From assembly GCA_947483795.1 (NCBI GenBank), contig CANKLZ010000002.1:1-63157 (forward strand): a stretch of 63,157 bases of DNA. Direction: 5' to 3'. The notes beneath the pieces are model-generated. The model saw only the letters and a program-made list of their open reading frames with translations, searched no databases and was not told the origin of the DNA. Positions within the stretch are counted from its first letter, which is position 1. Each line of letters starts with the position of its first letter. Made by a program: the position numbers and the translations under genes. The DNA is from Micrococcales bacterium (GTDB taxonomy: Bacteria; Actinomycetota; Actinomycetes; Actinomycetales; Microbacteriaceae). This document shows positions 37,782 to 43,625 of the stretch, piece after piece.

Positions 37782-39335
37782 ATGGCTTCAAAACCGACTA
37801 AGGCTTCTGCTGCATCTGCGGCAAAGAAAACCGTCGCGCCTAAAGAAAAAACCAAGGCTAAAGCGACAAGCGCAACAACTAAAGGAAAAACCATCAAATC
37901 TTCACCTAGCAAAGCAACGACAGTAAAGGCAGCCAAAGCCGAAGTCAAAACTAAGTCTGTCGCCAAGAAGCCAACCGCTAAAGTCGTGGCCAAGGCAACT
38001 AAACCTGTCGCGAAAACAGCAAAACCAGTGGTAAGGGTAGCAACTAAGAAAGTTGTAGCAAAGCCAGTTGCAAAAAAAGTGGTGAAGCCTGCGGCGAAGC
38101 CAGTTGCTACCGTCAAAGCTAAGGCATCGACAAAAGCAGAGGCTAAACCTCTCTCTAAGTCCACAGTTAAGGCTCCGAAGAAGATTGCTTCACCAAAGGA
38201 TATACTTCCAGCTGGAATTGATGTTGATGAAGATGAGGATGATTTAGATCCTGAGGTGCTGGTTAGCGAAGCGGAAGTAGACGTTATTGTCGCAGATGTT
38301 GAAGAGGTCATTCCAGAAGTTGAAGATGATGATGACCAACCAGTAGTTCCCGAGGGTGCTCTTGTCATTTCAAGCCGCGAAGAAGACGACATCCAGGTTC
38401 AAAGTACGAGCATCACTGGAGCAACTGCTGACCCAGTCAAAGACTACCTAAAGCAAATCGGTAAGGTTGCCTTGCTTAATGCCGAGCTTGAAGTTGAGCT
38501 CGCCAAGAGAATCGAAGCCGGACTTTTTGCTGAAGAGAAGATAGCTACAGATAAGAAGTTGAGCAAGGACATGGCTCGTGACTTGAAATGGGTTGTGAAA
38601 GATGGACAACGAGCTAAGAGCCACCTATTAGAGGCTAACCTTCGACTTGTTGTAAGCCTTGCCAAGCGCTACACCGGTCGAGGTATGCAGTTCCTTGACC
38701 TAATCCAAGAGGGAAACCTTGGACTTATTCGTGCAGTTGAGAAGTTTGACTACACCAAGGGTTATAAGTTCTCGACATATGCAACCTGGTGGATTCGACA
38801 GGCCATCACAAGAGCGATGGCAGATCAGGCGAGAACAATTCGTATTCCAGTACACATGGTGGAAGTCATTAACAAACTTTCTCGCGTGCAAAGGCAGTTG
38901 TTGCAAGATCTTGGTCGCGAACCAACTCCTGAAGAACTGGCCCGCGAGCTAGACATGACTCCAGAAAAAGTTGTCGAAGTTCAAAAGTATGGCCGCGAAC
39001 CAATTTCACTTTCAACTCCTTTAGGTGAAGACGGTGACTCAGAGTTCGGTGACCTAATTGAAGATACCGAAGCTGTGCAGCCTGCAGATGCCGTGGCATT
39101 TAGGATCATGCAGCGTGAGATCGAGCGACTTCTTGATACCTTGACTCCTCGTGAAGCAGCGGTTATTCGAAGCAGGTACGGAATTGGCGATGGAGTTATG
39201 AAGACCCTAGACCAAATCGGTGAAGACCACGGTGTAACTCGTGAACGCATTCGCCAGATTGAAGCGAAGACTATGTCCAAGCTAAAGCACCCATCCCGTG
39301 CTCAATGGCTTAGAGATTTCATCAAAGAGAGTTAG
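37782..39335 (+). CDS. rpoD: RNA polymerase primary sigma factor
   Basis: Sigma70 regions 1.2-4 ([54 protein letters not shown]) plus Lys/Ala-rich N-terminus. Confidence 0.96.
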
Positions 39336-39338
39336 TCA

Positions 39339-40607
39339 TTGTTTTACCTTCCAGCATTGCTAATCGGGCGACTAATTCGTTTCGCAGTTCGATTTGTAAG
39401 ACCTGGTGGAGGTTCAGCGTTACCGGGTTTAGTCGTAAGCAAGTTAGCCCCTAATCTCGTTTATAAATCGCTGAACTCTTTCAAAGACGGACTGGTTGTA
39501 ATAACTGGTACCGCAGGTAAGTCAACAACTACCAAGATGGTCGTTGCAGTTGTTAGGGCTCATGGAAAAGAAGTATTTACTAATCCCTCGACTGCCAACA
39601 TTCAGCAGGGATTCTTCAGCACAATAGTTCGTCACGGAGACCTTTTTGGCAAGGTTCCTGGTTCTATCGCAATTCTGGAAATGGACGAAGGCCATGCCGC
39701 TCGAATAGTTTCAAAAGTGAAGCCGATTACTTCAGTAATCCTCAATGTCTTCGAAGACCAACTAGATAGATTCATCGATCCAGCTTTAGTGCGAGAAAAA
39801 TTAGCTCAAGTTGCTAAAGCCACTGAGGGAACTGTCATCCTCAACGCTGACGATCAGAACTGTTTACAAATCGCTTCGTCACTAGATAATCCAATCCAGT
39901 ACTTCGGTCTTTCAGAAAAAGTAACTCAGTCAAGTGCAAGCCATATGGATTATGCGCAAACATTCTTGGCTGCAATCGCTAAACCTACTGCTCAAAGCAT
40001 CGCTTTGGACTTGGATGGATTGAACTTGGAAGTTGAGATATCAAAAGAGAGAACTTCCTTCACTCTTCCAAGTCGGGGAACACACTTCGCTCTGGATGCC
40101 GTTGCTGCAATGGCGTGCGCAAAGCAGATTCTGGGTCACGAATTTGATTTGGAATTGGCAGCTGCAGTCCTCAATGAATTACCACCAGTGTTTTCAAGGG
40201 GAGAGGTTCGCAACATTAATGGCGAAGCTTGCGAATTCATATTGGTACAGAATCCAATAAGCATGCAGTTGAACCTAGACAACTTACCTAAGCATCTAGG
40301 GCAAGTTATGTTCGCGATAGGTAGGGATGTGCACGATCCGTCTTGGATGTGGACTGTTGATTACTCAGCTCTTAAGAATGTGCACACGGTTACTGGATTC
40401 AACTACGCGGATGCAGCTTTGGTTTTGTCATATAACGATGTTGGCATTGAAGTGATCGAGCCTGAGTACCACGATGCTATTGATAGTTTCTTTGCTTTAC
40501 CAGCTCCAGCTGAGGGAATGAAGACCGTTATCTACAGCGCTGACGCAATGCGCAGGCTAAGGCGCTACATGGGTTTTACCGATCCAGAGGATGTCGAACG
40601 TGGCTAA
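39339..40607 (+). CDS. Divergent MurT-like Mur ligase
   Basis: TGTAGKSTTTK P-loop, LEMDEGHA, NVFEDQLDRF, LNADDQN, SWMWTVDYSAL; zinc-ribbon cysteines of canonical MurT absent. Confidence 0.85.
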   Translation: MFYLPALLIGRLIRFAVRFVRPGGGSALPGLVVSKLAPNLVYKSLNSFKDGLVVITGTAGKSTTTKMVVAVVRAHGKEVFTNPSTANIQQGFFSTIVRHGDLFGKVPGSIAILEMDEGHAARIVSKVKPITSVILNVFEDQLDRFIDPALVREKLAQVAKATEGTVILNADDQNCLQIASSLDNPIQYFGLSEKVTQSSASHMDYAQTFLAAIAKPTAQSIALDLDGLNLEVEISKERTSFTLPSRGTHFALDAVAAMACAKQILGHEFDLELAAAVLNELPPVFSRGEVRNINGEACEFILVQNPISMQLNLDNLPKHLGQVMFAIGRDVHDPSWMWTVDYSALKNVHTVTGFNYADAALVLSYNDVGIEVIEPEYHDAIDSFFALPAPAEGMKTVIYSADAMRRLRRYMGFTDPEDVERG

Positions 40608-41187
40608 GATTTTTAAGTTTGCAGCGCTCTACCCAAAGCACCTTGATCTCAACGGAGATCATGGAAATCTATTGGTTCTCCAAAAACGTCTGGCTTGGCG
40701 AGGCGTTTCAGCGGACATAGTGTCTGTTACTAAGCCGACGGACTTAGAGCAATTCGACTTCGTTCTTTTAGGTCACGGATCTAGAGATGCCTGGGCTGAA
40801 GTCCTAAGGATAGATCCTGAATTGATTTCAAAAGTAGGGAAGCTGGTGAGAGCATCTAAGTCGGTTATGGCAATCAGCTCTGGATATGAGCTTCTAATAG
40901 AAGAGCTTGAGTCATCTTCGGTTTCTCATGCGAATCACGTAAGCGAGTTCCGAGTAGTGGACAAAGTTGTTGGTTACGTGAACAGCGATTTGGTGTTGCC
41001 AGAAATTCAGCAACTTAATCAGACGGTTATGACTTTATTTCATGGGCCTGTACTGGCTAAGAATCCAGAATTGGCAGACCAAGTAATCAGCAAAGCGGGC
41101 TGGTGTGATGTTGTAATAAGAAATCTCGAAATAGATTCAGTTAATGAACTTGCTTCGGCTAGTCGCAGGATAGCTTTCGAAGACTAG
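40591..41187 (+). CDS. GatD-like class I glutamine amidotransferase domain lacking the catalytic Cys
   Basis: Downstream of and overlapping MurT; VMAISSGYELL where canonical GatD has ...CGGYQ(L/F)L; TLFHGPVLAKNPELAD retained. Confidence 0.82.
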   Translation: MSNVAKIFKFAALYPKHLDLNGDHGNLLVLQKRLAWRGVSADIVSVTKPTDLEQFDFVLLGHGSRDAWAEVLRIDPELISKVGKLVRASKSVMAISSGYELLIEELESSSVSHANHVSEFRVVDKVVGYVNSDLVLPEIQQLNQTVMTLFHGPVLAKNPELADQVISKAGWCDVVIRNLEIDSVNELASASRRIAFED

Positions 41188-41405
41188 TTGAGTTTGTCTG
41201 TCTCGTCTTGCCAGGTGATTGCGATTGGTTTGAGTTTGTCTTTGTTTGCCGTTCCGTGATGTCCACAGAAAACAAGATCTCCTGAGGCTAGAACAACACG
41301 GATAAAAGCTTGAGCCCCACAGATGTCGCAGCGGTCAGCAGCGGTCAATGCTGGTAGTTCTGTGGCTTCTAAAACCACTTCGTTGGTGCTTTCTGTCTGT
41401 TCCAT
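41184..41405 (-). CDS. DUF7455-like small protein with CxxC...CGHH
   Basis: TAADRCDICGAQAFIRVVLASGDLVFCGHHG; SD GGAGGA before ATG at 41405. Confidence 0.8.
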   Translation of the reverse strand: MEQTESTNEVVLEATELPALTAADRCDICGAQAFIRVVLASGDLVFCGHHGTANKDKLKPIAITWQDETDKLN

Positions 41406-41543
41406 TTGTTCCTCCATGACTACTACAACACAAGTACTTGAGTAAATGTTCCTCATTCGGCTGTATTTCGCTATCTGCGAATAGTTTTTCACTGTTTGAG
41501 TGTCCTAATCCTTTGATTTGCTGGTTCTGCTTAGGCTTGATGC

Positions 41544-43625
41544 ATGACTTCAAGTGATTACTCGGCACGCCATCTCTCAGTCCTCGAAGGTCTTGAAGCT
41601 GTTCGAAAGCGTCCTGGAATGTACATTGGTTCCACCGATAGTCGTGGCTTGATTCACTGTCTTTGGGAAATTATCGACAACTCGGTGGATGAAGCTTTAG
41701 CAGGCTACGGAAAGCTCATCAGCATCGTTTTGCATAAAGACGGCAGTGTGGAGATTACGGATCAGGCGCGAGGCATTCCTGTCGATATTGAACCAAAAAC
41801 TGGACTAAGCGGTGTTGAAGTGGTCTTCACCAAGCTTCACGCCGGTGGCAAGTTTGGAAGTGGCTCTTACGCGGCTTCCGGTGGGCTCCACGGTGTAGGA
41901 GCCTCTGTCGTAAACGCTCTTTCAGAGCGATTAGAGGTAGAAGTAGACAGAGACGGCAAGACCTGGGCTATGTCCTTTCACAGAGGAGCTCCAGGGCTTT
42001 TTGATGATAAGAAGACGCTGGCTCCAGGAAATCCCTTCAAACCATTTAAAGACAAAAGTGTTCTCCGTGAAATTGGTAAAGTTGCCAAAAACAAAACCGG
42101 TTCCCGAGTTAGATTTTGGGCTGATCCTCAGATATTCGTAAAAGGAGCTGAGTTCGAACTAGAAGACATTCTTTCCAGAGCTCGCCAAACAGCTTTCTTG
42201 GTTCCTGGCCTGAAGCTGGTTGTTACCGATCAGCGCTCTGGAAAAGTTGCGAATCATGAATTTTTCTTCCAAGGTGGTATCGTCGAGTTCGTTGACTTCC
42301 TAGCAAAAGATGCACCCTTGAGTAATGTTTGGAGACTCAGCGGAAGTGGTGCTTACTCTGAAACCGTGCCAGTACTGAATGCCGCTGGCAACATGGAATC
42401 CAAAGAGGTGCAACGTAACTGTGAAGTAGATGTTGTTGTGCGTTGGGGAACAGATTACAACACTGAAATCAAAAGTTTTGTAAACATCATCGCCACGCCT
42501 AAGGGTGGAACTCACCTTCAGGGCTTCGAACAAGCTCTTCTTAAGGTGCTCAAGGCGCAAGCAGATGCTAACTCAAGAAAGTTCAAGTTAGGCAACGAAA
42601 AGATTGAAAAAGAAGACGTTACTGCTGGACTCACCGCTGTGGTTACAGTGCGTATCGCAGAGCCGCAATTCGAGGGTCAGACTAAAGAAATTCTTGGAAC
42701 TCCAGCAATAAAAAACATTGTCGCCAACATCGTTTCAAAAGCTCTCACCGATCGATTCAATTCATCCAAGCGTGAGGACAAAGCACAAACGGCTCTAGTC
42801 CTTGAAAAAGTTGTAAACGAGATGAAGTCGAGAATTTCTGCGAGGACGCATAAGGAGACTCAGCGCCGAAAGACCGCGTTGGAGTCATCCTCTTTACCTA
42901 CCAAACTTGTTGACTGTAGAACTCAAGATACCTTCGATTCCGAACTGATCATCGTAGAGGGTGAATCTGCCCTCGGCACAGCAAAACTAGCTAGAAATAG
43001 CGAATTCCAAGCACTGCTACCAATACGTGGAAAAATCCTCAACGTTCAAAAGGCAGCTATTACCGACATGCTCAATAACACTGAGTGTGCTTCAATCATT
43101 CAGGTCCTCGGAGCTGGCTCGGGTAGATCCTTCGACTTAGCTTCAGCGCGCTACGGAAAAATCATTTTGATGAGCGATGCAGATGTCGATGGCGCCCACA
43201 TCAGAACCTTGCTGCTAACCCTGTTTTATAAATACATGAGACCTCTAGTTGAGGATGGTCGAGTTTTTGCTGCTGTACCACCACTGCACAGGGTGGTAGT
43301 AATGAATCCTGGCACTAAGCCCAACGAAACCATTTACACATACTCGCAACCTGAACTTGAGGCACTCTTGGCGAAGTTGGCTAAAGCGGGCAAGAAGTAT
43401 CAAGAACCGATTCAGAGATACAAGGGTTTAGGTGAGATGGATGCTGATCAACTTGCTGAAACAACTATGGATCGTAAGAGTAGATCACTGCGAAGAGTGA
43501 CAGTCGATGACCTAGCCGCCGCTGAAACTATGTTCGAACTACTCATGGGTAATGAAGTTGCTCCGAGAAGAGACTTCATTGTGGACAAAGCCGAGTCCTT
43601 TGAGCGAGAAAGAATTGACGCTTAG
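41544..43625 (+). CDS. parE: DNA topoisomerase IV subunit B (GyrB/ParE family)
   Basis: [41 protein letters not shown]; starts 6 nt after TAGGCT. Confidence 0.92.

What the first reader, a model, noticed from the sequence alone, without database searches (positions are those of the whole stretch)
39339..41187. MurT/GatD pair without the glutaminase nucleophile or zinc ribbon: possible repurposed peptidoglycan D-Glu ligase
Seen: at the position of the catalytic-Cys motif (CGGYQxL in the S. aureus protein as I recall it), the GatD-like protein reads VMAISSGYELL. The Cys and following Gly are both Ser (codons AGC TCT). The segment after it, which carries the glutamine-selecting Arg region in canonical GatD, is short with no clear counterpart, while the His motif (TLFHGPVLAKNPELAD) is kept. 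The partner Mur ligase reads TGTAGKSTTT rather than TGTNGKTTT and NVFEDQLDRF rather than N(F/I)FRDQLDR. It also has no C..C...C..C ribbon between LNADDQN and the C-terminal domain. Yet the Asp-bearing SWMWTVDYSAL region is kept, both ORFs are intact, and the genes overlap by 17 nt, arguing against simple decay. Established: canonical MurT-GatD uses Gln-derived ammonia to amidate the D-Glu alpha-carboxyl of lipid II, and many Microbacteriaceae have group B peptidoglycan, where that same carboxyl carries the cross-bridge residue. Inference: this pair may activate the D-Glu alpha-carboxyl and join it to an amino acid or other amine rather than ammonia, with the GatD fold as a pseudoenzyme.
Basis: partly seen in the sequence, partly recalled or inferred. 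Interest (0 to 1): 0.9.

Follow-up and report, generated by a model that had tools for sequence, protein, structure and literature searches.

The report
Cell-wall amidase turned amino-acid ligase
Most sampled members of one large bacterial family (Microbacteriaceae) carry a version of a known cell-wall enzyme pair whose ammonia-making half is dead, and its place in the genome suggests that it now attaches an amino acid, building this family's unusual cell-wall cross-link, a step for which I found no published enzyme.

Summary
In detail: a MurT-like ligase (39339-40607) overlaps a GatD-like protein (40591-41187) by 17 nt, and GatD has Ser at the catalytic Cys position. It is not a one-off. Microbacteriaceae hold a single clade of such pairs: 0/90 have the Cys, 0/90 keep the MurT gate Arg, both genes are under purifying selection, and the ATP and acceptor-carboxylate residues are kept. 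In 8 other families of the order, every pair checked is canonical. The missing zinc ribbon is uninformative: most canonical pairs checked also lack it.

New here: Cys-less pairs sit directly behind the principal sigma-factor gene; 0/97 canonical copies do. In 27 MurT-less family genomes, a stand-alone CofE-like ligase (amino-acid-to-carboxylate family) is present instead, in the same slot wherever checked; no genome has both (p about 5e-26). Racemase and diaminobutyrate-synthase genes occur in the slot. MurT-less genomes of other families carry CofE fused to an asparagine-synthetase-type amidotransferase.

Best reading: the pair activates the D-Glu alpha-carboxyl of lipid-linked precursor and joins an amino acid (first residue of the group-B cross-bridge; D-Dab in Rhodoluna), with GatD as a structural pseudo-glutaminase.

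The parts
37782..39335 (+). principal sigma factor (HrdB/SigA type); marks the conserved slot
   Evidence: homologue lies directly upstream of all D1/D2/T Cys-less pairs examined
39339..40607 (+). MurT-like ligase, Cys-less-partner clade (class D1)
   Evidence: AlphaFold2 pLDDT 89, nearest PDB folds are MurT/GatD complexes
39501..39533 (+). P-loop ITGTAGKSTTT (residues 55-65), Lys61 kept
   Evidence: sequence; G57, G60, K61 invariant in alignment A1
39753..39755 (+). Glu139 in place of the gate Arg (RDQLDR) next to the ammonia path
   Evidence: Arg in 97/97 canonical, 0/90 Cys-less clade; role of the loop from PMC6085368
40251..40274 (+). NPISMQLN (residues 305-312); Ser308 and Asn312 are clade-specific
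   Evidence: S308 98%, N312 100% in the clade, absent from nearly all canonical MurT
40335..40337 (+). Asp333 (S. aureus Asp349 equivalent), kept
   Evidence: invariant in A1
40591..41187 (+). GatD-like pseudo-glutaminase, 198 aa
   Evidence: AlphaFold2 pLDDT 94, nearest PDB folds are GatD
40651..40653 (+). GatD Asn21 in place of the Tyr that plugs the ammonia channel
   Evidence: Tyr in 97/97 canonical; Asn in 71/90 of the clade; plug role PMC6085368
40876..40878 (+). GatD Ser96 in place of the nucleophilic Cys
41041..41043 (+). GatD His151, kept here, lost in 30/90 of the clade
41184..41492 (-). small conserved protein that often closes the slot
41544..43625 (+). parE/gyrB-type topoisomerase subunit, far side of the slot

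Best explanation
The pair is a peptidoglycan amide ligase descended from the MurT/GatD amidase. MurT phosphorylates the alpha-carboxyl of D-Glu in a lipid-linked precursor with ATP. An amino acid, not ammonia, then attacks the acyl phosphate and becomes the first residue of the group-B cross-bridge (in this lineage most likely D-2,4-diaminobutyrate). GatD no longer hydrolyses glutamine; it is kept because MurT needs it as a structural partner, and its opened former glutaminase/ammonia path may admit the amino acid. Shown: sequence, clade, residue losses and retentions, purifying selection, slot, complementarity with the CofE-like gene. Inferred: substrate, nucleophile, stage.
For: Clade of 90 Cys-less pairs, support 0.955, 0/90 Cys and 0/90 gate Arg against 97/97 in canonical pairs. 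The channel-plug Tyr and a canonical Gly at GatD position 62 go with them, while K61, N87, E114, D116, E117 and R287 stay. dN/dS 0.06-0.17 (MurT), 0.06-0.20 (GatD). The clade was not found outside the family: all pairs with a readable GatD from eight other families of the order have Cys, and at phylum level only same-family genomes score above 410 bits. All D1/D2/T pairs are in the slot behind the sigma gene, 0/97 canonical copies are. MurT-less family genomes carry a CofE-like ligase instead, in the same slot where checked: 27 genomes, none with MurT, Fisher p 4.8e-26; in one large genus (g81) 3 have MurT/GatD and 7 CofE, none both or neither. Alanine-racemase-like pairs and diaminobutyrate aminotransferase genes in the slot. 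Precedents: S. aureus MurT made the MurE product (Lys ligation) in vitro, and GatD is needed even when NH3 replaces Gln (PMC3266927). Rhodoluna wall: B type with D-Dab and Gly-D-Glu peptide (PMC4156110).
Against: No biochemistry. 9 of 200 family genomes have neither gene and about 18 have only the canonical pair, with an empty slot in the two checked; their wall types are unknown to me, and if they are group B another enzyme must exist. The window's own slot holds no racemase, and its genome shows only one long Ala-racemase-like protein and no strong diaminobutyrate aminotransferase (genome 82% complete). Cys-dead GatD can still support NH3-dependent amidation in vitro. Wall types are known only per genus and for few named genomes.
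Confidence: 0.7

Rival explanations
1. Ammonia-dependent amidase: the pair still amidates D-Glu (or the free carboxyl of the bridge diamino acid), using free NH3 because GatD is dead.
For: S. aureus GatD C94G with MurT still amidates lipid II with NH3 at pH 8.5 (PMC3266927); Asp333 and mostly His are kept.
Against: In group B the D-Glu alpha-carboxyl carries the cross-bridge; the gate Arg and channel Tyr are lost too and new invariant residues appear; a stand-alone CofE-like ligase is the alternative gene; racemases and diaminobutyrate aminotransferase lie beside it.
Confidence: 0.1
2. The pair is a Mur-type amide ligase, but of a later residue or another carboxyl (second bridge residue, or a non-wall substrate), not the first bond to D-Glu.
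For: Several bridge types have two residues; Gryllotalpicola has a CofE-like gene and a Cys-less MurT/GatD side by side; some slots also hold an ATP-grasp gene.
Against: The acceptor Asn (N87) and acidic pair (D116, E117) that bind the D-Glu carboxylate in MurT are invariant (roles from PMC6085368); most genomes have only one such pair.
Confidence: 0.15
3. Decaying or relaxed remnant without a function.
For: Lost catalytic Cys; GatD shortened in the Rhodoluna-like lineage.
Against: One old clade in most sampled genera of the family, dN/dS well below 1 for both genes, confident folds, retained in streamlined genomes down to 0.93 Mb.
Confidence: 0.02

Closest known systems
MurT/GatD lipid II isoglutaminyl synthase (S. 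aureus, S. pneumoniae, M. tuberculosis)
   Same: two-gene overlap, Mur middle + MurT_C domains, GatD fold, no UDP-binding N-terminal domain, P-loop, acceptor Asn, acidic pair
   Different: no nucleophilic Cys, no gate Arg, no channel-plug Tyr, clade-specific S308/N312, different gene slot
MurE/MurF amino-acid-adding ligases
   Same: Mur ligase fold and acyl-phosphate chemistry with an amino acid as proposed nucleophile
   Different: no N-terminal UDP-MurNAc domain; needs (or keeps) a GatD partner
CofE (F420-0:gamma-glutamyl ligase) family; slot protein in MurT-less relatives
   Same: proposed role: amide bond between a carboxylate and an amino acid; same chromosomal slot
   Different: unrelated fold; the slot proteins fall far below the CofE equivalog cut-off (34.9 of 180.65 bits)
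Pseudomurein ligases and archaeal MurT-like (PMC11915815)
   Same: Mur-type ligases that diverged to new cell-wall peptides; MurT-like copies without GatD there
   Different: archaeal, different clades; no Cys-less GatD partner described in the passages I read

Membership tests
MurT/GatD glutamine-dependent amidotransferase | Mur_ligase_M plus MurT_C domains | tested here: met
MurT/GatD glutamine-dependent amidotransferase | GatD nucleophilic Cys | tested here: not met
   Ser96; 0/90 of the clade have Cys
MurT/GatD glutamine-dependent amidotransferase | GatD His and MurT Asp349 equivalent | tested here: met
   His151, Asp333 present; His is variable in the clade
MurT/GatD glutamine-dependent amidotransferase | RDQLDR gate Arg and channel-plug Tyr | tested here: not met
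   Glu139, Asn21
MurT/GatD glutamine-dependent amidotransferase | MurT zinc ribbon | tested here: not met
   absent, but also absent in 87/97 canonical pairs, so not diagnostic
MurT/GatD glutamine-dependent amidotransferase | NCBIfam equivalog scores | tested here: not met
   114.7 of 800 and 44.4 of 400
MurT/GatD glutamine-dependent amidotransferase | glutamine-dependent amidation of lipid II | not testable with these tools
   needs the assay
Mur ligase fold, ATP-dependent carboxylate activation | P-loop Lys, Mg-binding Glu/Asp, acceptor Asn, hinge Arg | tested here: met
   K61, E114, D116, E117, N87, R287 invariant in 18 clade members; fold
UDP-precursor Mur ligases (MurC-F) | N-terminal UDP-binding domain | tested here: not met
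   only about 45 residues precede the middle domain; no such Pfam match
Group B cross-bridge ligase (proposed) | present in group-B organisms, absent elsewhere | tested here: inconclusive
   found only in Microbacteriaceae, but 36/200 family genomes lack MurT; 27 of these have the CofE-like gene, 9 neither

The most novel reading that the evidence does not exclude
In Microbacteriaceae two unrelated D-Glu alpha-carboxyl amidases, MurT/GatD and an asparagine-synthetase-CofE fusion, were each turned into an amino-acid ligase by losing the glutaminase part (dead GatD; CofE alone). They exchange at one chromosomal slot and build the group-B peptidoglycan cross-bridge, with sub-clades matched to the bridging amino acid.
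Probability: 0.5. Interest if true: 0.93.

Novelty: new variant of a known kind. Interest (0 to 1): 0.87.

Why it matters
Group B peptidoglycan, cross-linked through D-Glu instead of residue 3, has been described since the 1970s, and I know of no assigned enzyme for the first bond of its bridge; my literature searches of the held library found none. These genes give concrete candidates, testable with lipid II in a tube, and a genomic marker for the wall type. They would also show how an amidotransferase becomes a peptide ligase by killing its ammonia source, apparently twice in parallel.

Tried and rejected
Zinc-ribbon loss as a marker: rejected, since most canonical pairs checked lack it. P-loop KSTTT as a marker: rejected (also in mycobacteria). 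A clean D1 = diaminobutyrate, D2 = Orn/Lys split: rejected, because Clavibacter and Herbiconiux (diaminobutyrate type, from memory) have D2a. A weaker form (Tyr/Phe in the DQ[IL]xRF loop = Lys/Orn genera) fits Curtobacterium, Okibacterium, Mycetocola and Microcella (types from memory), but one Glaciihabitans genome breaks it. EctB as a family-wide proxy for diaminobutyrate walls: uninformative, probably mostly ectoine pathways. I could not test group-B Firmicutes or Micrococcus luteus by name.

Full report
Observation. The window encodes a MurT-like protein (39339-40607, 422 aa) and a GatD-like protein (40591-41187, 198 aa), overlapping by 17 nt; MurT starts 3 nt after the stop of the principal sigma-factor gene. 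GatD has Ser96-Ser97 where canonical GatD has Cys-Gly. Both proteins have MurT and GatD chains as best PDB sequence matches, and predicted models with confidence 89 and 94 match MurT and GatD structures first. The genome is a 1.16-Mb, 82% complete assembly; only one MurT was found in it and in four nearly complete genomes of the same genus. The nearest named relative in the searched set is a Rhodoluna MAG (56% identity in MurT).

A clade, not an accident. I collected 209 distinct MurT sequences, nearly all with their GatD partner. Ninety from the Microbacteriaceae form one clade (support 0.955). All 90 lack the Cys (Gly 64, Ala 14, Ser 7, Asn 3, Thr 2) and all 90 lack the Arg of the RDQLDR loop; 97 of 97 canonical pairs have Cys, Arg and His. 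Every pair with a readable GatD from eight other families of the order has the Cys, and a phylum-wide search found clade-level scores only in this family. Five family genomes hold both a canonical and a Cys-less pair, so the two are not redundant. dN/dS is 0.06-0.17 for MurT and 0.06-0.20 for GatD, close to the canonical pairs.

What was lost and kept. Lost together: nucleophile, a canonical Gly at GatD position 62, the Tyr that plugs the ammonia channel and the gate Arg (roles from PMC6085368 and PMC6113224). Kept: P-loop Lys, Glu114, Asp116-Glu117, the Asn that contacts the acceptor carboxylate, hinge Arg, Asp333 (roles). [quoted passage not shown] So carboxylate activation is intact and ammonia delivery is gone. 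The zinc ribbon is not informative (87 of 97 canonical pairs lack it).

The slot. All D1, D2 and T class Cys-less pairs examined lie directly behind the sigma-factor gene; none of 97 canonical copies does (one apparent exception, L122, is an over-extended ORF). In two genomes with only the canonical pair the slot is empty. In MurT-less genomes the slot instead holds a protein of about 231 aa of Pfam F420_ligase, whose namesake CofE forms an amide between a carboxylate and glutamate. Family-wide it occurs strongly in 27 of 200 genomes, none of which has MurT (164 do), p = 4.8e-26. In genus g81, three genomes have the MurT pair and seven the CofE-like gene, none both, none neither; in g76 five and one. 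Beside the ligase the slot may carry two alanine-racemase-like genes, a diaminobutyrate aminotransferase, or an ATP-grasp gene.

A parallel outside the family. In 21 MurT-less genomes of three other families the CofE-like domain is fused behind an asparagine-synthetase-type class II glutamine amidotransferase; none of these genomes has a MurT at the threshold used. Eight of the 21 were read in full (L343-L350). I infer that this fusion is an alternative D-Glu amidase, and that the stand-alone Microbacteriaceae protein is its counterpart without the ammonia source, just as the Cys-less MurT/GatD is of MurT/GatD.

Mechanism. Rhodoluna has type B peptidoglycan with D-diaminobutyrate and the peptides D-Ala-D-Dab and Gly-D-Glu (PMC4156110). 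In group B the bridge starts at the D-Glu alpha-carboxyl, the carboxyl that MurT activates. S. aureus MurT could make the MurE product in vitro, and MurT needed GatD even with NH3 as donor (PMC3266927). The simplest reading is ligation of an amino acid to the acyl phosphate, GatD being structural. The amine, the substrate stage and the role of the old pocket are inference.

Weak points. Nine of 200 family genomes have neither ligase and about 18 only the canonical pair; their wall types are unknown to me. The match of sub-clades to diamino acids is only suggestive. The window's genome shows no dedicated diaminobutyrate synthase or extra racemase.

Noticed in passing
L303, L306-L308, L311-L319 (slot behind the sigma gene in MurT-less genomes): A conserved stand-alone CofE-like protein of about 231 aa replaces the Cys-less MurT/GatD; 27/200 family genomes, never together with MurT.
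   Followed up: yes
L343-L350: Asparagine-synthetase-type amidotransferase fused to a CofE-like domain (about 800-930 aa) in MurT-less genomes of three other families; in the f12 members seen the N-terminal catalytic Cys motif is missing.
   Followed up: partly
L025-L031, L058, L059, L278: Class T: a separate Cys-less MurT/GatD clade with zinc ribbon, His lost, Asp349 replaced by Asn, in the same slot, often with an ATP-grasp (ATPgrasp_ST) gene.
   Followed up: partly
L156, L173-L177, L180-L182: Clostridia MAGs carry another Cys-less MurT/GatD clade (NxQKDQxQRN loop, His also lost); the genome of L182 has a canonical pair as well (L220).
   Followed up: partly
L045: In genus g52 (Gryllotalpicola, named by a plasmid match) a divergent CofE-like gene lies directly beside a Cys-less MurT/GatD, outside the slot.
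   Followed up: partly
   Followed up: partly
L124, L316; also G056 and G169 by coordinates: A diaminobutyrate--2-oxoglutarate aminotransferase gene (EctB type in L316) lies in the slot next to the ligase.
   Followed up: partly
L056, L221, L279: Class D3 copies (DQLHRW loop), two of them outside the slot as second copies in their genomes.
   Followed up: no
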